Source: a virus
Length of the DNA stretch: 20,155 nucleotides
Strand: one strand, 5' to 3'
IMG/VR virus record: IMGVR_UViG_3300030450_000926
Coordinates: 1 to 20,155 of that record
Positions 7,140-18,947 of this stretch are shown piece by piece. A model generated the notes under the pieces. It was not told the DNA's origin, searched no databases, and worked only from the letters and a program-made list of their open reading frames with translations. The stretch's first letter is position 1. Each line of letters starts with the position of its first letter. The position numbers were made by a program, and so were the translations under genes.

Positions 7140-7321
7140 ATATCTTTAATGTATTGTGATACCTCTTTCATTGACGCATCAAGAGGAACGTACAAACACC
7201 AAGCACAAGGAAATTCCTCTGAGTAACAGTTCTTTTCATCCAAACACACAGGCAACATATAATCCTCTGTGTTCTCAGGTGTGAATAGTATTCGTAGTTC
7301 CTCTTTCTCATCATCAGACAT
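7112..7321 (-). CDS. Small cysteine-containing protein downstream of ribonucleotide reductase, 69 aa
   Basis: The ATG (7321-7319) overlaps the reductase TAA by one base (TAATG), so the two are translationally coupled. The protein has four Cys (26, 32, 39, 42), the last two as CAWC, in a middle segment flanked by an acidic N-terminus and a Lys-rich C-terminus. This could bind a metal or serve as a thiol pair. Coupling to a reductase that needs external reductant makes a redox role tempting, but it does not look like a glutaredoxin or thioredoxin fold (too short, no cis-Pro motif). No family recognised. Confidence 0.7.
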   Translation of the reverse strand: MSDDEKEELRILFTPENTEDYMLPVCLDEKNCYSEEFPCAWCLYVPLDASMKEVSQYIKDIKNKKSFKN

Positions 7322-9309
7322 TATATGTCCACAACTTCACAAAAGTCAGAAGTACAGGCAAACTCCTGAGAAGATTTTGTTTCATCCTCTTTTTCATATT
7401 GTGATAATGCACTCCACTCAATTTGGGCAGGAGTGTTTTTTAATAGCTGTTCATAAGTTTGTTTATCAACAGCTTCGTATGGTGCTTGTGTATATTTACC
7501 ACCATCATAAGGTAGAAAAGATATACCAGACATTTCATCAAAATGTTCATAAACCCATGCAGCAACTGTCAACCACTCATCCTCTCTAACAGTTACAGTA
7601 ACACTAGGTTTATGTTCGCACCAATACCTATAATAAGATAACCATAGTTTTAATTGATCTATAGCTACCTCATCATCTCTAGTTACACAATTATCAGGTG
7701 ACTTAATAGGGAAAGCAAACACTCCCATATTATCATTATAGATAGGTTTCTTTTGTTCTGCATCTTCAAAACCATTTATTGCGTGTTCAAAAGATACTCC
7801 ACTATCACGTAAGAATTGTGTCAACTTATCTTTCATATCTCCACGTACTCTTCTTATATAATATTCACTATGTCTTGAATGAATACCACTAGCTGTATCT
7901 GTTAATTGACTAACAGTACCACTAGGTTTAACACAAGTAATAGCAGCAGAAACATTGATACCTAACTTATCTGCAAATTCTTTATTAGTTTCTATAGCAA
8001 CATTCTTTAATGTTGTTAATGTTTCTTTCAAACCATCTTCAACATCTTTATAAGCTTTACCATTAGTTAATAATGAATCCATAATACCTGTAAGGCTAAC
8101 ACCTAACAATCGTTCTTCTTCTGTATTAAGTTGCCATCTCTTACGTAGATATTTAAAATCTGTAAGAGTAGATTGATACGTTCCTAATATTGTTGCAAGT
8201 CTTACTTTATTTTTTAACTCTTCTAAAGTATCAGCAGATCTTACCATCACTTCAGTCAAGTTGCAAAATTGGTTAGGACGTAAGATAATTTCTGAACATG
8301 GGTTAGTTCCATACTCCCAAGTCTTTCCATCACTACGTTTAGTATCTCTTCTACCATTCTCTTTTGCTTTATTAGTAGAAGCTTCTCTACTAAAGATACC
8401 ACGTTCACCAGACAAACTATCGTATAAAGCTTTCCATTCAGATAGAAAAATACTTACATCAGGTTTTGACGAATACACAGCCGAGTTATTCGACAAAGCT
8501 CTTTGTGCATTGATAGCCCACCAATTACCAGACTTAGCATTACGAAGGCGATCATCAGATAGATTGCTGAGAGAAATAAGAGCAGACCTCCTAACACCTC
8601 CCACAACAACAACTTCAGCAGTTTTACAAACAAGATCATGGCACTCTAAAGAAGTTAATCTTCTTCCCTTTGCTTCTTTAATTAAATTTACAGCGAAAGT
8701 AAACAGTTCATTTAATGGTGCAGGACCAGATGAACGTCCACCAAAAGTTCTTAGTCTTGCACCTGCTGGTCTAAGTTTAGATAAATCCCATTTAGGTATT
8801 TGACCTGCGTATAATAAAGTAATAAGTTCTCTAAATGCTTTAGCCCAACCAAGTTTACTATCAGCAACAACAATAGTAGTATCACTATTTTCAAACTCTT
8901 CATTAACTTTAGGAAGCTTATCTACGTTCTGTCTTTCAACACTAAATCCTACACCAGTACCATTCATTAGAACATATAATATTTCATCAAAGGATCTTAT
9001 ACTATCTACTGGAATGTAAGAACAGTTATAGGCAGCAACATTACATTGTTCTACTGCTGGTCCAGAAGTCATTAACAATCTCATAGATGGCATAATTTTT
9101 AAATTTAAAACAGAAGTTTGTAATTCATCTCTTAACTTATCATCTAAATTAAAATCAAACTTTTCTTTTAAATGTTTTTTCATATGGTCAAAATATCTTT
9201 GTACTGTCTCCGACCAAGTTTCTCTACGTCCTTCCTCCTCTAACCACCTAGCATATCTTGAGACATGAATGTATTGTTGGTATGCTGTTGGTAAATCTAT
9301 TTGATCCAT
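7321..9309 (-). CDS. nrdJ: Adenosylcobalamin-dependent (class II) ribonucleoside-triphosphate reductase
   Basis: Reduces ribonucleotides to deoxyribonucleotides using a cobalamin-derived radical. The sequence matches the monomeric Lactobacillus leichmannii RTPR type (about 739 aa; here 662). Seen with the ATG at 9309 as residue 1: an NPCSE motif with thiyl-radical Cys338 and catalytic Glu340; Cys349 eleven residues later, the same spacing as Cys408/Cys419 of the L. leichmannii enzyme; Cys89 in CNVAAYNC, the partner of Cys349; a CVKPSGTVSQ phosphate-binding loop near 459; and a C-terminal CTSDFC pair (652/657) with the CX4C spacing of the redox-shuttle cysteines. The frame is open to a TTG at 9336, but AAAGGAAG six bases before the ATG at 9309 decides the start. 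It overlaps the upstream nuclease gene by 13 bases. It would supply dNTPs for phage replication and depends on host or imported B12. Confidence 0.95.
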   Translation of the reverse strand: MDQIDLPTAYQQYIHVSRYARWLEEEGRRETWSETVQRYFDHMKKHLKEKFDFNLDDKLRDELQTSVLNLKIMPSMRLLMTSGPAVEQCNVAAYNCSYIPVDSIRSFDEILYVLMNGTGVGFSVERQNVDKLPKVNEEFENSDTTIVVADSKLGWAKAFRELITLLYAGQIPKWDLSKLRPAGARLRTFGGRSSGPAPLNELFTFAVNLIKEAKGRRLTSLECHDLVCKTAEVVVVGGVRRSALISLSNLSDDRLRNAKSGNWWAINAQRALSNNSAVYSSKPDVSIFLSEWKALYDSLSGERGIFSREASTNKAKENGRRDTKRSDGKTWEYGTNPCSEIILRPNQFCNLTEVMVRSADTLEELKNKVRLATILGTYQSTLTDFKYLRKRWQLNTEEERLLGVSLTGIMDSLLTNGKAYKDVEDGLKETLTTLKNVAIETNKEFADKLGINVSAAITCVKPSGTVSQLTDTASGIHSRHSEYYIRRVRGDMKDKLTQFLRDSGVSFEHAINGFEDAEQKKPIYNDNMGVFAFPIKSPDNCVTRDDEVAIDQLKLWLSYYRYWCEHKPSVTVTVREDEWLTVAAWVYEHFDEMSGISFLPYDGGKYTQAPYEAVDKQTYEQLLKNTPAQIEWSALSQYEKEDETKSSQEFACTSDFCEVVDI

Positions 9310-9614
9310 TGTGCTTCCTTTATTATTTTTATCCAAGTGATTTCAGGTAAAATATATAATCTTTGTTTACGGTCTACTCTAATCGTTAAAAAATCTGGCT
9401 CCTTATCAATCCAATCATAGATCTGTTTAAAACCTGACTTACGAACTTTACATTCACCAGTATAATTATTAAGTATGACATCATGTTTATAGCCTTCCGC
9501 TAGTCCAGACAGAGGAACTCGCAATGCTTTTTCTCTAGGCATCCCTAATTCTCTATGTAAATTAACAATAGCTCTTTCTTCTGATGCTCCTTTAGTCCTT
9601 TGACTTTTACCCAT
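9297..9614 (-). CDS. Holliday-junction-resolvase-like PD-(D/E)XK endonuclease, 105 aa
   Basis: A compact archaeal-Hjc-like nuclease. Visible signature: Glu12/Glu13 in a helix (GASEERAIVNLHRELG), the RVPLSG strand, Asp45 in KHDVI and the catalytic GECKVRK (Glu54, Lys56), followed by a GFKQIYDWI helix. This arrangement (Glu, then Asp, then ExK) is the Holliday-junction resolvase form of the PD-(D/E)XK fold, and the length is right for one domain. In T7 the corresponding job (resolving branched DNA and cutting host DNA) is done by gp3, a different PD-(D/E)XK protein. It overlaps the upstream small gene by eight bases and the reductase by 13, all in one operon. Function is known from the family, not proven here. 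Confidence 0.85.
   Translation of the reverse strand: MGKSQRTKGASEERAIVNLHRELGMPREKALRVPLSGLAEGYKHDVILNNYTGECKVRKSGFKQIYDWIDKEPDFLTIRVDRKQRLYILPEITWIKIIKEAQWIK
9314..9321 (-). promoter_or_regulatory. Ribosome binding site fixing the reductase start
   Basis: AAAGGAAG on the - strand lies four bases before the ATG at 9309. No comparable site precedes the upstream in-frame TTG at 9336. Confidence 0.7.
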
Positions 9615-9789: not shown

Positions 9790-9955
9790 TGTCTTCATTC
9801 CCAAAATCAATATCTAAAACGTCTTCAAACTTATTCATGTTGTCTGAGATCTTGTACCAAAGAATATCCACAAGTTCTTCTACAGATATATCTAGTATAT
9901 CTAGTATATCAGTCTGATCGCATTTGTCAATTATTAATTGTCGAGTTTCCAACAT
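9773..9955 (-). CDS. Small acidic protein, 60 aa
   Basis: AAGG is found about 13 bases and GAGAA about five bases before the ATG at 9955. The start lies inside the end of the upstream nuclease gene (29-base overlap) and the end overlaps the next gene by 17 bases. The sequence is strongly acidic, with an amphipathic helix (VEELVDILWYKI) and an Asp/Glu-rich tail. Part of the N-terminal helix is encoded by a 9-bp tandem repeat giving repeated Asp-Ile-Leu. Function unknown. Acidic proteins of this size may be inhibitors or DNA mimics, but nothing here shows that. Confidence 0.7.
   Translation of the reverse strand: MLETRQLIIDKCDQTDILDILDISVEELVDILWYKISDNMNKFEDVLDIDFGNEDNEFRE
9888..9910. repeat. 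9-bp tandem repeat inside a coding region
   Basis: The unit ATATCTAGT occurs about 2.5 times in perfect copies (9888-9896, 9897-9905, then ATATC). Nine bases keep the frame, and on the - strand the repeat encodes DIL-DIL-DI in the acidic protein. It looks like a recent slippage expansion. Confidence 0.8.
9903..9930 (-). promoter_or_regulatory. Candidate internal sigma70 promoter (near consensus)
   Basis: TTGACA (9930-9925) and TATACT (9908-9903) are separated by 16 bases on the - strand, inside the acidic protein gene. It would boost the downstream basic protein, resolvase and reductase. The -10 has one mismatch and the spacer is one base short. In AT-rich coding sequence such matches can arise by chance, so confidence is low. 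Confidence 0.3.
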
Positions 9956-10787
9956 TTAATTCTCTACCTTTTGGTTCTCTAACTACTTCTGTAAAATGTT
10001 TAATGGCATGAGTAAAAGCAAAACTTCTTAAACCTTTACCACCATTAGCATCAGACCAACAATGTTGTTTAAATCCACAATAGGCACATCCTATAGGTAA
10101 AACTCTATTGCCACTAACACCTTCAGCTACATCTTCATAACATCTTTCTGGAGGTGTGTCTTTATCTAATAGTTGTTTTAATTTTTTAATTCTAGGCTTA
10201 ACATTTTTTGCTTTTATTCTTGATATAGTTGCCGTTCCATTCTGTTTATCAACTGCAAGAAAAGCTGGATACTCATCTCCTTCTGATTGAGCATAACCAC
10301 TAATCTGATCTATGTAACCAAAAGGATCATCTTCTGCAAGGGTATTGTTTCTAAATTTTTTAAAAGCAAAAGAACTAGCAGACTTAACATCAACGACTAC
10401 ACCATCTATAATAGCATCCATGCGTCCTTTGATACCATCAATCTCTATTTCTTTTTGCTCTCCCTCTACTTTGTGTCCAGCTTCTTTTGCAAGAAAAAGA
10501 AAAAGCTCCTCGATAATATCACCTAATAAAAATTTAATCTGTGTATTAGGTAGCCACTTTTCTCTTGGAGCTTTATTCAGTTCGTACCAAACTTGACGAT
10601 CTGGTTTACCTATATTAGACATTCTCAAACGAGGTTCCCACTCTCTGTTCTTTAACATCTTTAATCTGACAGCTTTAGCAATACCATTTAAAAGTATTCT
10701 AATATTATTGTCTTCTGGGTAGTGACTTTCTTCACCATTAAAGAGATCGTAAATATCTCCAACCAGAGTATCAAGTTTTTTTTCCAT
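9927..10787 (-). CDS. RecB/Cas4-like PD-(D/E)XK exonuclease, 286 aa
   Basis: A RecB-family nuclease domain fills residues 85-190: GRMDAI with Asp124, then VVDVKSAS with Asp133 and Lys135 (the DxK catalytic pair), then QISGYAQ (Gln161), the motif typical of the RecB/Cas4 group. After the nuclease core come Cys216 and CAYCGFKQHC (Cys234, 237, 243). Four cysteines in this arrangement could hold an iron-sulfur cluster, as in Cas4 and AddB, although the first Cys of those families sits before the nuclease core. Its place between SSB and the resolvase equals that of the T7 gp6 exonuclease, so a role in host DNA breakdown or end processing is likely. The ATG overlaps the SSB stop as TAATG. It is unlikely to be a CRISPR Cas4, as no cas genes are near. 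Confidence 0.85.
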   Translation of the reverse strand: MEKKLDTLVGDIYDLFNGEESHYPEDNNIRILLNGIAKAVRLKMLKNREWEPRLRMSNIGKPDRQVWYELNKAPREKWLPNTQIKFLLGDIIEELFLFLAKEAGHKVEGEQKEIEIDGIKGRMDAIIDGVVVDVKSASSFAFKKFRNNTLAEDDPFGYIDQISGYAQSEGDEYPAFLAVDKQNGTATISRIKAKNVKPRIKKLKQLLDKDTPPERCYEDVAEGVSGNRVLPIGCAYCGFKQHCWSDANGGKGLRSFAFTHAIKHFTEVVREPKGRELNVGNSTINN

Positions 10788-11296
10788 TATGCGAACTGTT
10801 CTTCTAGGTACTCATTATTGGAAGCAGAGAAACCATCATCTCTCTTCTTAAATGTAGTAGATGATCCACCACTTCCACCTGCTCCCTCATAAGGAACAAG
10901 ATCAATGATCTGAACATTGCGTATAAATGCCTTGTTCTTTCCTTTAGCTGGACCACCTGGTACTTCTAGCACAGCAAACTCTACCACAACTTTACTACCA
11001 TTACCAATCAATACATCATGTGTAACATCATTCATATCACAATCATACACCTTTGGAGGTATTGCTGGTTTACCACTCTTTGTAACAGCATTGAGAACAA
11101 AACTAAATCCTTCACCAATATCATCTTTCTTAACAGAAGCTGTTAAATTTAAAGACTCTAATAGTTTTTTGTTTCGTGCATCAACATACACTTTAATAGA
11201 GTATTGTTCTTCATTAATAAAAGGATTACGTCTAGGCTGATCTAACTTAGCCCAATATGCAAGTCCTTCAACTGTATAAACATCTGCTTTAACCAT
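10787..11296 (-). CDS. Single-stranded DNA-binding protein, T7 gp2.5-like (169 aa)
   Basis: Coats single-stranded DNA and coordinates polymerase and helicase. The N-terminal part (PRRNPFINEEQYSIKVYV) and the strands through residue 135 fit the OB fold of the T7 gp2.5-like phage group. A Gly/Ser linker (about 138-147) leads to a tail ending NEYLEEQFA, a modestly acidic and aromatic end like the gp2.5 tail that contacts partner proteins, though T7's is more acidic and ends in Phe. It is shorter than T7 gp2.5 (232 aa). AGGAG precedes the ATG by about nine bases, and an exact sigma70 consensus promoter stands directly upstream, so it is the first gene of its own transcript as well as part of the longer operon. 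Confidence 0.85.
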   Translation of the reverse strand: MVKADVYTVEGLAYWAKLDQPRRNPFINEEQYSIKVYVDARNKKLLESLNLTASVKKDDIGEGFSFVLNAVTKSGKPAIPPKVYDCDMNDVTHDVLIGNGSKVVVEFAVLEVPGGPAKGKNKAFIRNVQIIDLVPYEGAGGSGGSSTTFKKRDDGFSASNNEYLEEQFA

Positions 11297-11330: not shown

Positions 11331-11359
11331 ATTATAAACTACTTCTACAACTTTGTCAA
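11331..11359 (-). promoter_or_regulatory. Exact-consensus sigma70 promoter upstream of SSB
   Basis: On the - strand TTGACA (11359-11354), a 17-base spacer and TATAAT (11336-11331) match the bacterial housekeeping promoter consensus at all twelve positions. The -35 overlaps the end of the MazG-like gene. Transcription would begin near 11324, about 28 bases before the SSB ATG, and serve SSB, both nucleases and the reductase. Confidence 0.85.
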
Positions 11360-11707
11360 GTCTACAGGTAAGTAATTGTTTGACTTCAATATTTTACCAT
11401 CTTCACGATAAATAGGTTTACCATCATCATCTAATTTTGTCATGTTAGAAGCGTGTACTAAATTAAACATAACAGATAAATCCCATCCATACCTTACAGA
11501 CATAGACACACAAACATATACTAAATCTACTAACTCCTTCTTTATATTGGGTACATCTTTAGCCTCCATTAATTCATTACATTCTTCTCTAATAAGTTTT
11601 AAAGGTAATTCACTATCCTCTGTAGAAAACTTTTTACCTACAGGATGTCCAAAAGCTTTGTGAAACTTTTCTAATTTATTTTCAAACGTATCATATGTAA
11701 ACAACAT
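11345..11707 (-). CDS. MazG-like nucleotide pyrophosphohydrolase (PRA-PH-like), 120 aa
   Basis: An all-alpha NTP pyrophosphohydrolase of the MazG/HisE-like superfamily, which splits NTPs to NMP and pyrophosphate with bound Mg2+. Residues seen: Glu42-x-x-Glu45 in REECNELMEA and Glu58-x-x-Asp61 in KKELVDLVY, the ExxE...ExxD metal site. The C-terminal segment (SNMTKLDDDGKPIYREDGKI) is typical of the phage phosphoribosyl-ATP pyrophosphohydrolase-like branch. Start: the frame runs to 11734, but AGGAG six bases before the ATG at 11707 decides it. The polymerase TAG lies within this ribosome site, so the two genes do not overlap. A role in nucleotide-pool cleaning, or in lowering alarmone signals as proposed for cyanophage MazG, is inferred. 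Confidence 0.85.
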   Translation of the reverse strand: MLFTYDTFENKLEKFHKAFGHPVGKKFSTEDSELPLKLIREECNELMEAKDVPNIKKELVDLVYVCVSMSVRYGWDLSVMFNLVHASNMTKLDDDGKPIYREDGKILKSNNYLPVDLTKL

Positions 11708-11715
11708 TTTTTCTC

Positions 11716-13455
11716 CTAGTGTGTTAGTGACCAATTATTACCTATCTTATATTCACCATCAAGAGGACAGTTAAGATTAAGAGCTTGTGCTGTGTTGCGT
11801 ATAGATCGTATACCTATGTTCGCTACTTGTTCACAAAGTCTTGTTGGTACATCCAACTGCCACTCATCATGTATGTTTGCAACAAAGTATTTTGCAGGGC
11901 TAAGTCTTTGTTTTAATAAGTCTTGATAAAAAATAGTTAAAGCTTTCTTCATTACAATAGCACCTGCACCTTGTAATAAAACATTAAGTGCTGAATGTTC
12001 AGATCTTATCGTAAGATACCTTCCGTCAGCACCCTTGATTTTACCAGTTTTAGCAGCCCTAAAGACTCTTTCTCTAAGATTTGCAAGTGCTGGAGTACGA
12101 TTGAGAAATCGTTCTTTAAGTTCTTTTCCATCTGCTCTACTTCCACCAACGACAGCTCCAATTTTTGCATCTCCTGCTCCATAGATAAAAGCATAGATGA
12201 ATGTTTTTGCCTGATCTCTTGATTGCAATCCTGCAACCATTTGGTTAACTGTGTGTATGTCTCCATGAACTACTTCCTTTGTATATTCTTTGTCATTCAT
12301 ATAATGTGATAACATTCTTAATTCTAAACTACTAGCATCTATACCAATCAAACTATTCCCACTACTAGGTATCCAACACTCCCTACATTCTTCTCCATAA
12401 GGTTTACGTGTTGAAGGTACTTGAGCCATGTTAGGTTTTCTATGTGTCATACGTCCTGTAATAGCTCCATTAGTTATAACACTACCATGCACTCTCCCAT
12501 CTTTCTCTGATGCTTCAATCCAAGATTTGATTTGTGCATTACGTTTTTCTAATGTTAGATACTCTGCTATTTGTTTTGCTTCTGGTATGTTTACTCTTTC
12601 TAAAACCTTTTCATTTACAATAGCTTGTCCCTTTTCTGTAAACTCTTTTGGTTTCCATCCCAATCTTTTTAACCTATCACTAATTTGTTGACGAGATGAG
12701 AGGTTAAAGGAAACATATTTAATACGACTAAAGTTACCACATACAGTAGACATAGGATCAGGAATACCACTAAGACCAACCTTACTAAGTCTACCGTCTT
12801 TAGTGTGACGTATCTTAACTTCTTTATCCAATGCAACAACTGGTAGCCACTTCTCTGTAATTTCTTTTTGAATATCATTTGCCCTCTGCATCAGGTCTGC
12901 TAATAATAATTGTGCCTTCTGCAAATCAAAATTAAAACCTACTTTTATTTGTTTACTAATTATATGTTGAACTTCATGTTCTAAAACCATAGACTCTTCT
13001 GAAAAATCTTTACCTTCTTCTAACAAACGATAGAATGTTTTCTCTGTTACTTCAACATCCTGTTTACAATACTTGAGCATCTCTTCTGAATACTTTTCAA
13101 AATCATTGAAATGTATTTTAGGACATCCGAGATATATTCCCCATGCGTCAAGAGCATGACCCTTTTCTCTAATTGGGCTAAACAAACGTGATAATAATAA
13201 CGTATCAATACAATCATTTACTTTTATCCTTGCGTTCCAAAGTCTATTTAATACAGGAGCATCAAAAGATATTCCATTGTGCATAATAAACACACTAGGA
13301 ACGGAATGAATATAAGAAGTAAAATCTTTTCCATCTCTAAAACTCCGTACTTCTTTTGTATCTATATCTTTCGTAACAGCAACATGAATAACTGTAGCAT
13401 CAAGACTATCTGTTTCAATATCAACTACTAACTTTCTCTTGTTCTGCTTCAACAT
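11716..13455 (-). CDS. Family A DNA polymerase, T7 gp5-like, with 3'-5' exonuclease (579 aa)
   Basis: The replicative polymerase. Exonuclease domain (1-150): DIETD (Asp12, Glu14), HNGISFDAP (Asp65) and YCKQD (Tyr129, Asp133) supply all four metal ligands plus the Tyr, so proofreading looks intact. Polymerase domain: motif A GIDASSLELR (Asp373); motif B/O-helix RDQAKTFIYAFIYGAG (Arg413, Lys417, Tyr421), nearly identical to T7; motif C IHDEW (His529, Asp530, Glu531); the chain ends NNWSLTH, keeping T7's C-terminal His. It is shorter than T7 gp5 (704 aa). The thumb region that carries the thioredoxin-binding loop in T7 (here about 202-255) looks some 25 residues shorter. The start at 13455 overlaps the primase-helicase end by 35 bases, with GGAGAG upstream. 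Confidence 0.95.
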   Translation of the reverse strand: MLKQNKRKLVVDIETDSLDATVIHVAVTKDIDTKEVRSFRDGKDFTSYIHSVPSVFIMHNGISFDAPVLNRLWNARIKVNDCIDTLLLSRLFSPIREKGHALDAWGIYLGCPKIHFNDFEKYSEEMLKYCKQDVEVTEKTFYRLLEEGKDFSEESMVLEHEVQHIISKQIKVGFNFDLQKAQLLLADLMQRANDIQKEITEKWLPVVALDKEVKIRHTKDGRLSKVGLSGIPDPMSTVCGNFSRIKYVSFNLSSRQQISDRLKRLGWKPKEFTEKGQAIVNEKVLERVNIPEAKQIAEYLTLEKRNAQIKSWIEASEKDGRVHGSVITNGAITGRMTHRKPNMAQVPSTRKPYGEECRECWIPSSGNSLIGIDASSLELRMLSHYMNDKEYTKEVVHGDIHTVNQMVAGLQSRDQAKTFIYAFIYGAGDAKIGAVVGGSRADGKELKERFLNRTPALANLRERVFRAAKTGKIKGADGRYLTIRSEHSALNVLLQGAGAIVMKKALTIFYQDLLKQRLSPAKYFVANIHDEWQLDVPTRLCEQVANIGIRSIRNTAQALNLNCPLDGEYKIGNNWSLTH

Positions 13456-14983
13456 CTGATATATTTCTCTCCATCATTCTTCCTGTTTCTGGATCATAGT
13501 ATAAGTGACAAGCTGTTCCAGTCTCACCTGTCCATCTATTCTTCCATACAACTACGTCTGTAGTGTTTCTTTCAATGTCATCCTCCGCTAACCTATCTCT
13601 TTTTAAACCTACCACCATGTTAGCTAACTGTTCTATACCAGCCGTACCTCTTATCTGTCCTTGTCTATTGACATGAACAACAGCTAACAAACATATTCCT
13701 AATTCTATTGTTAGGGTTTTTAATTTTGTTGCGATCTCATCCAAGATCTTTCTTTCATCTGCACCATTACGTCCATCACTAACAACAATACTAATATGAT
13801 CCAAGATAATAAACCTACAGTCTAATCCTTTAGCATAGTATCTAATCTTTGCTAAGAGATTGTCAATATCCATTGACCCAAATGAGTCATAAAAATATAT
13901 TCTATCATCAGCTAGTATCTGTTTTCCATATTGTTCTCTATCTTTAGGTTCTAAAACGGTCTTAAATTTATGAGCAGGTATATCTGCTTCCATAGATGCA
14001 AGACCAATACTACTAATTTTAGGTGTCTCTTCTAAAAATAAAGTACCAATTCGTTCCTTTGTATTCTTTAATAGGTAATGACATATCTCTCTTAGGAAAG
14101 ATGTTTTACCTACACCTGTCTCAGCGGTAACAACAACCATCTCACCTTCTCTCATACCATCTGTTATTCTATTTAATCCAGACCACGGATATGATATAGA
14201 CTGTGTTTCATCTGTCTCACCTAACGAACTAATTAAAGAAGATGATGCTAGTATACCATCTGGAACATAGTTCTTTGCGTTCCACCAAGCATTAACAAAA
14301 TCTTTTATCTTATTCTTTTGTAAATAATCATTAGCATCTTTCTCTACTAATGGAACTATCTTTGCTTTACGAGGTGAAAATAACTGAGCAACTTTTTCTG
14401 AAGCTGTTCTTCCTACCTCATCATTATCAAAACAAATGACTACATTATCAAAGCTGTCTAAGTATTCAAAATTTTTCTTAACATCTCTTACAGCAGATTG
14501 TCCACCATTCTTAATAGATACTACAGACCATTTGCTACCAAGCATTTGATAAGCAGACATAGCATCTACTTCACCTTCGCATATCGTTATATACTTACCA
14601 GTATTTCTAAAAAGATTTTGACCAAACAATCCTGCATCTTTTATATCACCTTGCGAGAAAAAGTTTTTATTAATTACATTCCTAACTTTAGTACCAACAA
14701 TATTATTATTAGCATCATAGTAAGGATAGTGATGCGTATTGTTATCAGGTGATACTGTTACTCCAAAAAATTTAACTGTATCTTCTGACAATCCTCTGAA
14801 TGGTTTATGTTGTAAGTTTGTTTCCATTTTATAAACATTCTTATCCTGTTGTTTGTAATCTTCATTCCATTTAAAAGTTTCACAAGAATAACAGTACGTG
14901 TGATTATCATACAATGCTAGTGCATCACTTGATCCACAATCCTCACATGGTAAATGTGTTTGTAATGCTTGTTCATTACTCAT
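13421..14983 (-). CDS. T7 gp4-like primase-helicase, 520 aa
   Basis: A bifunctional replisome protein. Primase half: a zinc-binding domain with Cys13, Cys16, Cys31 and Cys34; a TOPRIM fold with ICEGE (Glu136) and CFDNDEVG (Asp186, Asp188). Helicase half (RecA/DnaB type): Walker A AETGVGKTS (Lys293, Thr294), catalytic Glu in LFLEET (318/319), Walker B FIILDH (Asp395), His437 in VVHVNR, and the KNRWTGETG segment with the presumed arginine finger. All key residues are present, so both activities are likely. The length is close to T7 gp4A (566 aa). The ATG at 14983 overlaps the DUF3310 stop by eight bases, and the end overlaps the polymerase start. I see no good internal ribosome site for a helicase-only short form. 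Confidence 0.95.
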   Translation of the reverse strand: MSNEQALQTHLPCEDCGSSDALALYDNHTYCYSCETFKWNEDYKQQDKNVYKMETNLQHKPFRGLSEDTVKFFGVTVSPDNNTHHYPYYDANNNIVGTKVRNVINKNFFSQGDIKDAGLFGQNLFRNTGKYITICEGEVDAMSAYQMLGSKWSVVSIKNGGQSAVRDVKKNFEYLDSFDNVVICFDNDEVGRTASEKVAQLFSPRKAKIVPLVEKDANDYLQKNKIKDFVNAWWNAKNYVPDGILASSSLISSLGETDETQSISYPWSGLNRITDGMREGEMVVVTAETGVGKTSFLREICHYLLKNTKERIGTLFLEETPKISSIGLASMEADIPAHKFKTVLEPKDREQYGKQILADDRIYFYDSFGSMDIDNLLAKIRYYAKGLDCRFIILDHISIVVSDGRNGADERKILDEIATKLKTLTIELGICLLAVVHVNRQGQIRGTAGIEQLANMVVGLKRDRLAEDDIERNTTDVVVWKNRWTGETGTACHLYYDPETGRMMERNISDVEAEQEKVSS

Positions 14984-15230
14984 ATAATCCTCTCAGTCTT
15001 TCTAAATACCAGTTTGATTTATCCAAATCTTCTTTAGGTTTACCTTTGTAATTATATCTCCATAAATATTTTACCACATTTCCTTTTAAATATCCAGCAA
15101 ATTCTTCTTTAGTCATTGAAGCTTCTATAGCATTAATACATTCTATACTACCTTTGTTATAATGTGGAGGTTTATTTACTACATCATCTTCACGTATAGG
15201 TCTTGTTAAAATGTTACTATATATTGCCAT
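14976..15230 (-). CDS. DUF3310 family protein (T7 gp1.7-related), 84 aa
   Basis: The segment from VNKPPHYNKGSIECINAIE through YLKGNVVKYLWRYNYKGKP to DLDKSNWYLERL is the hallmark of DUF3310, a small helical domain common in tailed phages and found at the C-terminus of T7 gp1.7, which has nucleotide kinase activity. Whether this stand-alone domain has any enzymatic activity is unknown. Conserved His, Asn and Lys residues around PPHYNKG and LKGNVVKYLWR suggest a ligand or nucleotide site. AAGGAG lies about 11 bases before the ATG, which forms a TAATG junction with the upstream gene. It sits directly before primase-helicase, consistent with a nucleotide-metabolism or replication role. Confidence 0.88.
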   Translation of the reverse strand: MAIYSNILTRPIREDDVVNKPPHYNKGSIECINAIEASMTKEEFAGYLKGNVVKYLWRYNYKGKPKEDLDKSNWYLERLRGLYE

Positions 15231-15421
15231 TAATTTTCTCTCCTTACATCTACTGTATAATCTTTTTCAACTATCAAATTAGAAACTATTGTATAATATA
15301 TTTCACCATCTGGTTTCATATGTTTCTTTAACCTAGCTCCAGCATTAATTCCACGTTTTAACCAGAACATATTAATTCGCTGTACTAAATTTTTATTAAA
15401 TATAAAATCATCTTCACTCAT
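15230..15421 (-). CDS. Hypothetical phage protein, 63 aa
   Basis: The frame is open to a TTG at 15448, but AGGA nine bases before the ATG at 15421 favours that start. The core (QRINMFWLKRGINAGARLKKH, then EIYYTIVSNLIV) looks like one helix followed by two strands. I recall similar short proteins in marine podoviruses, but no named family or function. It ends in a TAATG junction with the DUF3310 gene. A close alternative start is the ATG at 15427. Confidence 0.72.
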   Translation of the reverse strand: MSEDDFIFNKNLVQRINMFWLKRGINAGARLKKHMKPDGEIYYTIVSNLIVEKDYTVDVRREN

Positions 15422-15542
15422 TATCATCCGTCCTATAACAATTTTCAAAACGTGCTACGAACACAAAGCTAGGTCTTTTCTCTGTTGCTTCAACTGTTAT
15501 TATCTGGAACGGTTTCTTTTTCTTCTTTAAATTCTTTTGCAC
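15414..15542 (-). CDS. Tentative overlapping small gene, GTG start, 42 aa
   Basis: A frame missed by length cutoffs. GTG at 15542 has GGAG ten bases upstream. The protein begins with a Lys-rich stretch, continues as PFQIITVEATEKRPSFVFVARFE-like beta-strand sequence, and stops eight bases inside the next gene, the same overlap style seen in the rest of the operon. Its first half overlaps the 52-aa gene in another frame, but its second half (15414-15489) fills what would otherwise be a gap in a gene-dense operon. No family recognised. Alternatively the 52-aa protein could be extended into this frame by a frameshift, but no classical slippery site is visible. Confidence 0.45.
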   Translation of the reverse strand: MQKNLKKKKKPFQIITVEATEKRPSFVFVARFENCYRTDDNE

Positions 15543-15648
15543 TTTTTAATATCTCCATAATAGAATTAACTTGTCCCCACGGAAGTCTGGATGTTGCTGA
15601 TAGTATATCAGTTAATTGTTTTTCTGTCAATACAAATTTTCTTTCCAT
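15490..15648 (-). CDS. Small hypothetical protein, 52 aa
   Basis: Starts at a TAATG junction with the upstream basic protein and ends at TGA 15490. The sequence is helical: RKFVLTEKQLTDILSATSRLPWGQVNSIMEILKSAKEF, then Lys/Glu-rich and ending in polar residues. The N-terminal half resembles a compact two-helix unit found in small early phage proteins. No function recognised. The ATG has no strong ribosome site of its own, so translation is probably coupled to the preceding gene. Confidence 0.65.
   Translation of the reverse strand: MERKFVLTEKQLTDILSATSRLPWGQVNSIMEILKSAKEFKEEKETVPDNNS
15602..15630 (-). promoter_or_regulatory. Candidate sigma70 promoter before DUF3310/primase (near consensus)
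   Basis: TTGACA (15630-15625), a 17-base spacer and TATACT (15607-15602) on the - strand, inside the 52-aa gene. Eleven of twelve consensus positions match with ideal spacing. It would serve the genes through primase-helicase and polymerase. Its location in coding sequence lowers confidence. Confidence 0.4.
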
Positions 15649-15800
15649 TATTTTTTACTCCATTTAATGTTGCTGTAGTTATCTCTATACTCATCTGATG
15701 TATACTTCTGTCTTTCTTTTCTAGCAGAAGGTATTGACCAACGTGGTCTTTTAACTCTCTGATCTTTTGAAGGTCTTAAATTTTTACTCTTCGACTTCAC
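15648..15800 (-). CDS. Small basic protein with GTG start, 50 aa
   Basis: GTG at 15800 overlaps the upstream TGA as GTGA and has AGGAG about six bases before it. The end makes a TAATG junction with the next gene. The protein is very basic: a Lys/Arg-rich N-terminal half with PRWSIPSARKERQKY, then a short polar segment with Tyr and Asp, ending WSKK. The composition suggests nucleic-acid binding or a ribosome/polymerase-binding early protein, which is inference only. The junctions on both sides are the main reason to believe the gene is real. Confidence 0.7.
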   Translation of the reverse strand: MKSKSKNLRPSKDQRVKRPRWSIPSARKERQKYTSDEYRDNYSNIKWSKK

Positions 15801-16030
15801 TTAACTCTCCTATGTTCTAACTCTCCTATACTCCAATAGTATCTAGGCTTAGTTCCTTTACTACTATAGATTAAGATAGCAGGATTGTCTCCTGTATCTT
15901 TCCAAAACTGTTTACCAGTATATTCCCACTCATGTCCTTGTTCTTTTAGCTCCTCTACTTTGTTAAAAAATTCTGAGTTTGTTGCGAATAATACAGACCA
16001 ACCCAATAACAATCCTACAATTATATCCAA
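15797..16030 (-). CDS. Small protein with N-terminal hydrophobic anchor, TTG start, 77 aa
   Basis: No ATG is available in the frame. TTG at 16030 is preceded by GGGGGAT with seven-base spacing and overlaps the upstream stop by ten bases. Residues 3-17 (IIVGLLLGWSVLFAT) form one short hydrophobic segment, enough for a membrane anchor or uncleaved signal. The remainder is polar and aromatic (WEYTGKQFWKD, RYYWSIGELE). No family recognised. Together with the next upstream gene it makes a pair of small predicted membrane proteins just after the hydrolase and metallopeptidase genes. Confidence 0.6.
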   Translation of the reverse strand: MDIIVGLLLGWSVLFATNSEFFNKVEELKEQGHEWEYTGKQFWKDTGDNPAILIYSSKGTKPRYYWSIGELEHRRVK

Positions 16031-16233
16031 TTATATATCCCCCATATTCCTGCGATAAAATAACAAATTTCCATTAACATTCTTGGTACATCCTTATCTT
16101 TTTTAGCAAACCAAATCCAAGCTAGACAGGATATAGATGATACTGTCCAACCTATCCATTGAATAGAAACATTACCAGACGTTAGCAGTAATAAAGATGC
16201 TACTGCTCCTACAAAAGCTATCCAACGAAACAT
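16021..16233 (-). CDS. Small multi-pass membrane protein, 70 aa
   Basis: Almost entirely hydrophobic with three predicted transmembrane helices at about residues 4-18, 24-43 and 52-69, the last two separated by a charged AKKDKDVPR loop. GAGGAT precedes the ATG at 16233, two bases after the previous stop. Small Trp-rich three-helix proteins of this kind are frequent in phages, and I cannot assign a function. Because it is near a cell-wall hydrolase it could be a holin, but its place in a likely early/middle operon also allows a superinfection-exclusion or host-membrane role. Confidence 0.68.
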   Translation of the reverse strand: MFRWIAFVGAVASLLLLTSGNVSIQWIGWTVSSISCLAWIWFAKKDKDVPRMLMEICYFIAGIWGIYNWI

Positions 16234-16235
16234 AA

Positions 16236-16424
16236 TTAACTATCCTCAAACAAACTTTCCAATATAACTTCTACAACTTCAACGGAATATCCTAATCGTA
16301 ACATTCCAATAGTAAACTCTTCTTGATCTATCCTAGAATACTCTAGTTTTTGTATAAGCTGTTCTGCTTTACGTTCTCTAAAAGCATCAACACCTACGAT
16401 TTTGTTAGGTTCTTCTTTATCCAT
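16236..16424 (-). CDS. Hypothetical helical protein, 62 aa
   Basis: Starts inside the end of the metallopeptidase gene (31-base overlap). The sequence is charged and helical: VDAFRERKAEQLIQKLEYSRIDQ, then EEFTIGMLRLGYSVEVVEVILESLFE, like a short helix-turn-helix-rich domain without a clear DNA-binding signature. No function recognised. No strong ribosome site is apparent, so translation probably depends on the upstream gene. Confidence 0.65.
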   Translation of the reverse strand: MDKEEPNKIVGVDAFRERKAEQLIQKLEYSRIDQEEFTIGMLRLGYSVEVVEVILESLFEDS

Positions 16425-16708
16425 GTCAATAACTTTGGGTTATCTCTAAAAATTTGTGTCCAGTATGTAGCCATAACTGCTACGGCTCTCTCTTCTTTCT
16501 GTGTTTTATTTTTTAATTGACCAACAGCCCAGACTACATGATTGATTTCATGTAGCAACGTATCAACCAATGTTGCACCTTCTAATCTATCATCTATTCT
16601 AATACGAGTATTGATGTAACTAAAATCACCAAACGTATCATCTTCTAGCGGCATACGAAATACCTCAACATCAATAGCTCCAACTCTAATTGTCATAAAT
16701 GGTTTCAT
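16394..16708 (-). CDS. Putative zinc metallopeptidase-fold protein (HEINH), 104 aa
   Basis: Residues 48-60 read VDTLLHEINHVVW, an HExxH zincin motif with His53, Glu54 and His57. Glu72/Glu73 in KEERAVAVMATYWTQIFRDNP follows at the spacing expected for the third zinc ligand on the next helix. A beta region precedes it (TRIRIDDRL), which gives the minimal zincin layout seen in small phage proteins of this type. The biological substrate is unknown; peptidoglycan peptides or a host regulator are both possible. The start overlaps the cell-wall hydrolase gene by 23 bases, so the two are probably translated together. AGGAAGG lies about ten bases upstream of the ATG. Confidence 0.75.
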   Translation of the reverse strand: MKPFMTIRVGAIDVEVFRMPLEDDTFGDFSYINTRIRIDDRLEGATLVDTLLHEINHVVWAVGQLKNKTQKEERAVAVMATYWTQIFRDNPKLLTWIKKNLTKS

Positions 16709-17243
16709 AAAACAAGTGCCTTCCTATTCTACCAAGATAAATAAAATCTTCAGAGTAAGCCCAATAAGGTGAAACATAATTTGCATGGTAGTGTGTTGCA
16801 AACTCTATTCCTTCAATCGTTACTCCATCCATCAATAAAATTACTACCTCTTGTACTTTAGCTAACGCTTTGATATTGTTATATCTTTCAGCTTTTCCAT
16901 CACACCAGTAGGTAAAAGCACATTTAAATTTTACAGGATTACCTTCCCAATAATGACCTTCATGTACAACATCACAAATAGTATTTGGGTATCGTTCACT
17001 TCTAACTCTATTTAAAATAACAATACCAATAGCTAACATACCACTTACACTTTCAGACCTACCTTCAAAATAAATTGCTTCAACAAGACAACCCATATCT
17101 TCTGGTCTATCTGTAGCTTTAGCTGTATTAAAAGTTAAGACAACTCCCAACACAACCACAAGACAACTATAATAACTACGATTAACATTTTGAAACCTTT
17201 TTATAAATTGCTTGTAAGAGAATAGATTTATCATCATTATCAT
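16686..17243 (-). CDS. SleB-type cell wall hydrolase with N-terminal signal (endolysin candidate), 185 aa
   Basis: The domain from residue 50 matches the Hydrolase_2/SleB family of peptidoglycan hydrolases: LVEAIYFEGRSES (Glu55, Glu60), AIGIVILNRVRSERYPNTICDVV, an FKCAFTYWCDGK segment and a C-terminal ATHYHANYV...PYWA...IGRHLFY. The N-terminus carries a basic region then a hydrophobic stretch (about 26-38) ending NTAKA, which looks like a cleavable signal peptide with cleavage near residue 43. The enzyme would then reach the periplasm without a holin pore. Starts at 17243, 17237 and 17234 are all possible; AAGG at 17244-17247 favours one of the latter two. The gene is in the - strand early/replication block, away from the late genes. 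Confidence 0.85.
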   Translation of the reverse strand: MIMMINLFSYKQFIKRFQNVNRSYYSCLVVVLGVVLTFNTAKATDRPEDMGCLVEAIYFEGRSESVSGMLAIGIVILNRVRSERYPNTICDVVHEGHYWEGNPVKFKCAFTYWCDGKAERYNNIKALAKVQEVVILLMDGVTIEGIEFATHYHANYVSPYWAYSEDFIYLGRIGRHLFYETIYDN

Positions 17244-17346
17244 CCTTGAATAGTGTTTTATTATCTTCTAAAATATTATATAATTCTTTTATAATATCTT
17301 TATAAGGAATTTCTTTAACATAAGCCCAATCATCTATGTGTGTCAT
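17182..17346 (-). CDS. Small protein at the head of a promoter, 54 aa
   Basis: Starts at ATG 17346 with AGGAAG/GAGGA directly upstream, about ten bases after the expected start point of the consensus promoter at 17363-17391. The protein is helical and charged (WAYVKEIPYKDIIKELYNILEDN, then an Asp/Asn/Lys-rich centre) and ends LLQAIYKKVSKC. Its 3' part overlaps the hydrolase start by about 60 bases in another frame, so it may act as a leader whose translation opens the hydrolase start. No family recognised. Confidence 0.68.
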   Translation of the reverse strand: MTHIDDWAYVKEIPYKDIIKELYNILEDNKTLFKDDNDDKSILLQAIYKKVSKC

Positions 17347-17539
17347 CTTCCTCTACTCCTATATTATATACTGGATTTATACTATTGTCAAGAAAAAAAT
17401 TATCATTTAATAATTCAATATCATACAGGATTTCTTTACTAATATTCTTACAAGTACCACAGTAATCCCATCTTTTTAATAGCTTATTAAACTTTATTTC
17501 ACTTTGTTCAAGTAATTTATCACAACACGAACACCTCAT
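17330..17539 (-). CDS. Zinc-ribbon small protein, 69 aa
   Basis: I choose ATG 17539: AAGGAG lies about eight bases upstream and the start forms an ATGA overlap with the previous stop, whereas the longer frame has no ribosome site. Cys3-x-x-Cys6 and Cys27-x-x-Cys30 with an intervening beta-like stretch (KFNKLLKRWDYCGTCK) make a typical zinc ribbon. The second half is acidic and helical. Its last codons contain the consensus promoter that drives the next genes. Small zinc ribbons of this kind are common early phage proteins, and function here is unknown. Confidence 0.75.
   Translation of the reverse strand: MRCSCCDKLLEQSEIKFNKLLKRWDYCGTCKNISKEILYDIELLNDNFFLDNSINPVYNIGVEEDDTHR
17363..17391 (-). 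promoter_or_regulatory. Exact-consensus sigma70 promoter upstream of the hydrolase unit
   Basis: TTGACA (17391-17386), 17-base spacer and TATAAT (17368-17363) on the - strand match the consensus fully. It is embedded in the end of the zinc-ribbon gene. Predicted initiation near 17356 leaves a very short leader of about ten bases that still holds the ribosome site of the 54-aa gene. Confidence 0.83.
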
Positions 17540-17730
17540 TGTCCTACTCCTTGCTTCCAATTAAATTCTAATTGATTAGGATTGTCTAGGTATCTAATGT
17601 AATCAGATAAACATTCATTAATATCTTGTAAGTTTATATCTGTAACGTAAGCCACTTGAAAAAAATCTCGCAACCAATGTTCATCCATTGTATGTATTTC
17701 ATCATGGGTTTTGTATGGTTTGAATTGCAT
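17536..17730 (-). CDS. Hypothetical protein, first gene after a consensus promoter, 64 aa
   Basis: ATG 17730 has AAGGAG about seven bases upstream and is the first gene downstream of the promoter at 17781-17809, with a leader of about 45 bases. The sequence (YKTHDEIHTMDEHWLRDFFQVAYVTDI, then LQDINECLSDYIRYL) is helical with several acidic residues and an aromatic cluster. It ends with an ATGA overlap to the zinc-ribbon gene. No family or function recognised. Being first in its transcript suggests that it is made in quantity. Confidence 0.75.
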   Translation of the reverse strand: MQFKPYKTHDEIHTMDEHWLRDFFQVAYVTDINLQDINECLSDYIRYLDNPNQLEFNWKQGVGQ

Positions 17731-17780
17731 TGTCTACTCCTTTCCAATAATCTATCCACTATTGAACAGAAAATTACCAT

Positions 17781-17809
17781 ATTATAACATACTATTACTA
17801 AAATGTCAA
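17781..17809 (-). promoter_or_regulatory. Exact-consensus sigma70 promoter in the largest intergenic gap
   Basis: TTGACA (17809-17804), 17-base spacer and TATAAT (17786-17781) on the - strand match the consensus at all twelve positions. It lies in a non-coding gap between the hairpin at 17837-17897 and the 64-aa gene, a classical intergenic position. Confidence 0.9.
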
Positions 17810-17836
17810 TACCTTCATATCCTTAATATAAGAGCC

Positions 17837-17897
17837 GTCAGAAACATTCTCTAAATTTTGGCTGTCTAGTACCTAAACTTTGAGAAAATGTTCTGAC
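17837..17897 (-). terminator. Long imperfect hairpin in intergenic gap (terminator, operator or processing site)
   Basis: Outer arms GTCAGAAACATTCTC (17837-17851) and GAGAAAATGTTCTGAC (17882-17897) pair apart from small bulges. The inner bases continue the stem (ATT/AAA block and GG/CC) with a few mismatches, leaving a loop of about ten bases near 17862-17871. It follows the stop of the 99-aa gene by about 18 bases and precedes the promoter. No U run follows on the - strand, so simple intrinsic termination is doubtful. An operator or an RNA processing signal are alternatives. Confidence 0.6.
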
Positions 17898-17914
17898 ACC
17901 CCTTCTCTGCTCTA

Positions 17915-18770: not shown

Positions 18771-18947
18771 TTAATCCTCTACTTGATATTTATATTTACC
18801 ACTACTAAACTCTTGTTGTTCTCTTAACACTTTAAGTACAGCTTGTTCAATAAGCATTTCAAACCAATCACTTTTTACAAGTTCTTCTAGCCTACTTGTT
18901 ACAAATTCTTCAAGTGCGTTAGCTATTTGTTGACTAGGTTGTTGCAT
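18771..18947 (-). CDS. Small helical protein, 58 aa
   Basis: GAGGAGG directly upstream of ATG 18947 decides this start over the longer frame to 18998. The protein is helical and Gln/Glu-rich: QQPSQQIANALEEFVTSRLE, then SDWFEMLIEQAVLKVL and a basic tail. It overlaps the preceding gene by 14 bases. No family recognised; it is possibly a dimerising coiled-coil early protein. Confidence 0.68.
   Translation of the reverse strand: MQQPSQQIANALEEFVTSRLEELVKSDWFEMLIEQAVLKVLREQQEFSSGKYKYQVED

What the first reader, a model, noticed from the sequence alone, without database searches (positions are those of the whole stretch)
11331..17809. Three perfect sigma70 promoters on the same strand in a phage replication block
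TTGACA-N17-TATAAT occurs exactly at 11331-11359, 17363-17391 and 17781-17809, always on the - strand and each a few tens of bases before a gene with a strong ribosome site. Exact matches of all twelve positions with ideal spacing are rare even in AT-rich DNA, and three in one 6.5-kb stretch imply selection. It suggests the whole early/middle block relies on host RNA polymerase, with nested boosts for the SSB-nuclease-reductase unit and the hydrolase unit.
Basis: partly seen in the sequence, partly recalled or inferred. Interest (0 to 1): 0.6.

Follow-up and report, generated by a model that had tools for sequence, protein, structure and literature searches.

The report
Three conserved host-type phage promoters
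A fragment of a virus related to marine SAR11 phages carries three textbook-perfect bacterial promoters that its relatives also keep, so the virus most likely uses its host's own RNA polymerase; this is ordinary phage biology, with one unexplained conserved hairpin next to one promoter.

Summary
TTGACA-N17-TATAAT occurs exactly three times in the window, all on the - strand at the stated coordinates; about 0.03 matches are expected by chance. The sites are under selection. Close relatives keep P1 (SSB gene) and P2 at 12/12, and P3 at 11-12/12, while the 17-bp spacers drift (hexamers 35/36 identical, spacers 34/51). P1 and P2 are also recognisable in a ~73%-identical sister group. The nearest cultured phages, Pelagibacter phages HTVC103P, HTVC104P and HTVC115P (complete genomes), show no T7-type RNA polymerase or sigma factor by HMM search and carry 2-4 exact promoters each on the coding strand. 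Transcription by host RNA polymerase is therefore the best reading.

Perfect host-type promoters are common in viral contigs, some with 3-5 of them, so this is a good example of a known kind.

The one less ordinary item is a long conserved hairpin just upstream of P3 (17816-17905, -), the most structured 90-nt stretch of the window, without an Rfam match; my guess is an RNase III-type processing site or insulator.

The parts
11331..11359 (-). P1: TTGACA-17-TATAAT before the SSB gene; the -35 box overlaps the end of the MazG-like gene
   Evidence: exact match; 12/12 in nine relatives, TTGACA-17-TATCAT in the 73% group
17363..17391 (-). P2: TTGACA-17-TATAAT, wholly inside the 3' end of gene 17330-17560, 16 nt before the ATG of gene 17182-17346
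   Evidence: exact match; 12/12 in seven relatives; 11/12 with 17 bp (L138) or 12/12 with 18 bp (L137) in the 73% group
17781..17809 (-). P3: TTGACA-17-TATAAT, intergenic, before gene 17536-17730
   Evidence: exact match; 12/12 in four relatives, 11/12 in three
17816..17905 (-). conserved non-coding imperfect hairpin directly upstream of P3
   Evidence: z -4.4; most structured of 4,014 90-nt stretches; conserved in six relatives; no Rfam match
10787..11296 (-). gp2.5-like single-stranded DNA-binding protein, first gene after P1
   Evidence: PHROG 112, E 1.5e-6
9927..10787 (-). Cas4-domain exonuclease, downstream of P1
   Evidence: PHROG 1990, E 2.4e-40
7321..9336 (-). ribonucleotide reductase, downstream of P1
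   Evidence: PHROG 367, E 1.6e-187
11716..13455 (-). DNA polymerase
   Evidence: PHROG 17; 49-51% identical to HTVC103P-type phages
13421..14983 (-). primase-helicase
   Evidence: PHROG 239, E 1.4e-166
16686..17243 (-). cell-wall hydrolase (endolysin family), downstream of P2
   Evidence: PHROG 938, E 5.8e-18

Best explanation
The three sites are genuine host-type (sigma70/RpoD) promoters of a phage related to the HTVC103P-type pelagiphages, a group in which no T7-type RNA polymerase is found. Host RNA polymerase would start at P3 and P2 to read the small genes, the hydrolase and on into the primase-polymerase block, and at P1 to give the SSB-nuclease-reductase genes an additional supply of transcript. 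Shown: the sequences, their non-random occurrence, their conservation at the same gene boundaries, and no hit to the polymerase family in complete relatives. Inferred: that they fire, when they fire, and the 'boost' role.
For: Exact matches 3 against 0.03 expected. P1 is 12/12 in nine relatives, P2 in seven, P3 11-12/12 in seven. Hexamers 35/36 identical against spacers 34/51 versus L011 (Fisher p 0.0003), and 22/24 against 15/34 for P1 and P2 versus L138 of the 73% group (p 0.0002). The P2 -35 box uses GAC, a rare Asp codon in this block (27 GAC, 197 GAT), and the P1 -35 box uses TTG, a minority Leu codon (41 of 271). P2 is kept at the same gene boundary in the 73% group, though intergenic in L138. 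No PF00940 hit in HTVC103P/104P/115P or in partial relatives, while HTVC019P rings at 4e-106; no sigma factor region 4. The complete relatives carry 2-4 exact sites each, all on the local coding strand.
Against: HTVC010P also lacks the RNA polymerase but has no exact site, the same as HTVC019P which has one, so lack of polymerase does not predict perfect sites. The window is a fragment; its earliest region and any late promoter are not seen. P1 and P2 overlap coding sequence, which may explain part of their conservation. Many relatives are near-identical, so there are only about three independent lineages. No transcript data.
Confidence: 0.87

Rival explanations
1. The exact matches are chance or by-products of coding sequence in AT-rich DNA and do nothing.
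For: P1 -35 and all of P2 overlap coding sequence; looser promoter-like sites are at chance level.
Against: Expected number 0.03; hexamers conserved more than spacers; P3 is wholly intergenic and P2 is intergenic in L138 of the 73% group; no match of the reversed pattern in 24 related records.
Confidence: 0.05
2. The sites are host-type promoters, but the lineage also encodes its own RNA polymerase or a phage-specific transcription factor outside the window, so that the host enzyme serves only part of the programme.
For: The window and its close relatives are fragments; the distant HTVC104P has a gene annotated as a putative transcriptional repressor.
Against: No PF00940 or sigma70 region 4 in three complete HTVC103P-type genomes or in partial close relatives; those genomes carry exact host-type sites in their late blocks too.
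Confidence: 0.15
3. The conserved part at P3 is mainly the hairpin, which is a DNA-level element (protein-binding site or replication origin) rather than an RNA processing site, with P3 as a neighbour or as the primer promoter of an origin.
For: Sequence conservation includes the unpaired loop and exceeds that of the P3 spacer; no two-sided compensatory changes.
Against: Very strong folding as RNA and several one-sided changes that keep pairing; no further copies in the window group by exact pattern, and no skew change at this place.
Confidence: 0.3

Closest known systems
HTVC103P-type pelagiphages (HTVC103P, HTVC104P, HTVC115P)
   Same: Same architecture of a replication block converging on a structural block; DNA polymerase 49-51% identical; no phage RNA polymerase found; exact sigma70-type sites on the coding strand
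   Different: No nucleotide-level match; their exact sites are partly in late blocks and not at the same genes; the window's host is unknown
Early promoters of phages read by host RNA polymerase (T7 A1-A3, T5, lambda PL/PR; general knowledge)
   Same: Near-consensus -35/-10 boxes with 17-bp spacing ahead of phage genes
   Different: Here all twelve positions match three times, and the sites lie inside and just ahead of the replication block
HTVC010P-type pelagiphages (Skadi-1, PMC10504331)
   Same: No phage RNA polymerase; sigma70 promoters predicted near DNA replication genes
   Different: HTVC010P has no exact 12/12 site and a different gene set
T7 early-mRNA RNase III sites (general knowledge)
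   Same: Long irregular hairpins between genes, often close to promoters, like the element at 17816-17905
   Different: No sequence relation tested; cleavage untested

Membership tests
Bacterial sigma70-type promoter | -35 TTGACA and -10 TATAAT with 16-18 bp spacing | tested here: met
   12/12 with 17 bp at three places
Bacterial sigma70-type promoter | conserved at orthologous places | tested here: met
Bacterial sigma70-type promoter | transcription start 5-9 nt downstream of the -10 box | not testable with these tools
   needs 5'-end mapping
HTVC103P-type pelagiphage | replication genes with HTVC103P-type phages as best named relatives | tested here: met
   DNA polymerase best hits HTVC104P/103P/115P at 49-51%; one gene only, no tree built
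HTVC103P-type pelagiphage | SAR11 host | not testable with these tools
   host of the contig unknown
Autographiviridae (T7-like with own RNA polymerase) | single-subunit RNA polymerase gene | tested here: inconclusive
   no PF00940 in the window, partial relatives or three complete distant relatives, HTVC019P control positive; but the window is a fragment
RNase III processing site (hairpin) | long imperfect double-stranded hairpin between genes | tested here: met
RNase III processing site (hairpin) | cleavage by RNase III | not testable with these tools
   needs biochemistry
Intrinsic terminator (hairpin) | run of U directly after the stem | tested here: not met
   stem is followed by ATATTAAGG; not listed by the terminator scan

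The most novel reading that the evidence does not exclude
The hairpin at 17816-17905 and P3 form one control module, an RNA processing or attenuation device coupled to a consensus promoter that separates the early accessory genes from the replication block. It would be the switch that lets a phage without its own RNA polymerase or sigma factor stage its gene expression.
Probability: 0.15. Interest if true: 0.45.

Novelty: new member of a known kind. Interest (0 to 1): 0.24.

Why it matters
It supports the view that some marine phages related to SAR11 podoviruses run their replication genes from host-type promoters and may need no polymerase of their own. It also marks a conserved hairpin worth testing as a control point. 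Strong promoters as such are expected in such phages.

Tried and rejected
Looser promoter scanning: no signal above shuffles at 9 of 12. Rfam and tRNA scans: nothing. Nucleotide search in named phages: no relative (only a 47-bp match to a Streptomyces phage). Exact-pattern scans for further copies of the hairpin: only the same close group. Compensatory changes in the hairpin: none at both sides, only one-sided changes and some breaks, so covariation does not prove the RNA structure. Sites at 9903-9930, 10384-10412 and 1953-1980: inside genes, partly explained by coding or antisense to the gene, not counted as promoters. The apparent compensating indels in the P2 spacer of L010/L011 in the BLAST alignment, repeated in notebook entry 1, are plain substitutions at a fixed 17 bp; the same note's count of 11 relatives for P1 is corrected to nine in entry 2. 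A first PF00940 search of the window had no positive control and was repeated on relatives with one.

Full report
Observation. The pattern TTGACA-N17-TATAAT occurs exactly three times in the 20,155-bp window, at the coordinates given and always on the - strand; 0.03 matches are expected from dinucleotide shuffles, and Markov models of order 1 and 3 agree. The backwards control pattern has no match in the window or in 24 related records. Weaker sigma70-like sites are at chance level (94 against 94.2), so only the exact or near-exact sites carry information.

Setting. The window is a fragment of a virus record. The left 7 kb reads rightward; it includes a 1,458-aa ORF that I take, unconfirmed by any family search, to be a virion protein. 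From 7.1 kb to the right end the genes read leftward: ribonucleotide reductase, a small nuclease, Cas4-domain exonuclease, gp2.5-like SSB, MazG-like pyrophosphohydrolase, DNA polymerase, primase-helicase, then small genes, a cell-wall hydrolase and more small genes. The best DNA polymerase relatives among named phages are Pelagibacter phages HTVC104P, HTVC103P and HTVC115P at 49-51% identity, with the same converging layout. The host of the window's virus is not known.

Conservation. Related contigs fall into a close group (83-99% identical primase), a sister group (73%) and distant ones (35-46%). P1 is 12/12 in nine close relatives and TTGACA-17-TATCAT in the 73% group. P2 is 12/12 in seven close relatives; in the 73% group the same gene boundary has TTGACT-17-TATAAT (L138, intergenic) or TTGACA-18-TATAAT (L137). 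P3 is 12/12 in four relatives and 11/12 in three. Against L011 the hexamers are 35/36 identical and the spacers 34/51 (p 0.0003); against L138 of the 73% group (P1, P2) 22/24 and 15/34 (p 0.0002). Many contigs are near-duplicates, so this is about three independent lineages. Codon choice also points to selection on the DNA: GAC and TTG, minority codons in this block, are kept in the -35 boxes of P2 and P1.

Context of each site. P1 overlaps the end of the MazG-like gene and leaves a ~28-nt leader before SSB. P3 is intergenic with a ~44-nt leader. P2 lies wholly inside the end of the upstream gene and its -10 box is 16 nt from the ATG, so its leader would be about 10 nt; a similar short distance (about 17-18 nt) is seen in the 73% group.

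Which polymerase. No single-subunit RNA polymerase (PF00940) is found in the three complete HTVC103P-type genomes or in the partial relatives, with HTVC019P as a positive control, and no sigma factor region 4. The complete relatives hold 2, 2 and 4 exact sites, all on the local coding strand, including ahead of late-block genes such as Hsp20 and a putative structural gene. HTVC019P, which has its own polymerase, has none, but neither has HTVC010P, which lacks one; the link between lack of polymerase and perfect sites is therefore not established by this comparison. Host-polymerase use without a phage polymerase has been proposed for the HTVC010P-type phage Skadi-1, with sigma70 promoters near replication genes (PMC10504331).

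How unusual. I ran no background control for that scan, so it shows that such sites are frequent in viral contigs, not by how much they exceed chance. Three in 6.5 kb is a good example, not a surprise.

Hairpin. Directly upstream of P3, at 17816-17905 (-), lies an imperfect ~30-pair hairpin (z -4.4), the most strongly folding of 4,014 90-nt stretches scanned on both strands. It is conserved in six relatives, more strongly than the P3 spacer; in L011 the neighbouring downstream proteins are only 59-64% identical. It has no Rfam match and no exact-pattern copy outside this group. Changes within stems mostly keep pairing on one side, with no double compensations and a few breaks, so the RNA structure is plausible but not proven by covariation. 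It lacks a U-run, so it is not a classical terminator. It lies outside the P3 transcript and would be in transcripts arriving from upstream genes. By analogy with T7 early mRNA (general knowledge) I think an RNase III-type processing site or insulator is most likely, at perhaps 50%.

Verdict. Observation confirmed; promoter interpretation well supported by sequence but untested by experiment; ordinary in kind.

Noticed in passing
17816-17905 (-): Conserved long non-coding hairpin just upstream of P3, most structured stretch of the window, no known RNA family.
   Followed up: partly
L020 (HTVC115P) 18832-18860 (-); HTVC115P record 50898-50926 and 54238-54266 (-): Three exact promoters of HTVC115P share AGGTGTATAAT in and before the -10 box, suggesting a common promoter subtype or operator.
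   Followed up: no
L140 3190-3218 and 7165-7193 (-); L138 564-592 (-): Relatives carry near-identical promoters TTGACTTTGTTGTTNATTTGTGGTATAAT, twice in one contig, on the strand opposite to the primase; possibly a repeated early promoter with an operator in the spacer. L138 has a similar one.
   Followed up: no
15602-15630 (-): Near-perfect promoter-like site (11/12) inside the start of a small gene; exact 12/12 at the apparently homologous place in L008/L009 but lost in L010/L011.
   Followed up: partly
9903-9930 (-): TTGACA-16-TATACT inside a 60-aa gene; in the 73% group it is an exact TTGACA-16-TATAAT (L137, L138) within a conserved peptide, so coding may explain it.
   Followed up: partly
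L138 400-2000: Long stretch with few ORFs and repeated short motifs near the early end of a 73%-group contig.
   Followed up: no
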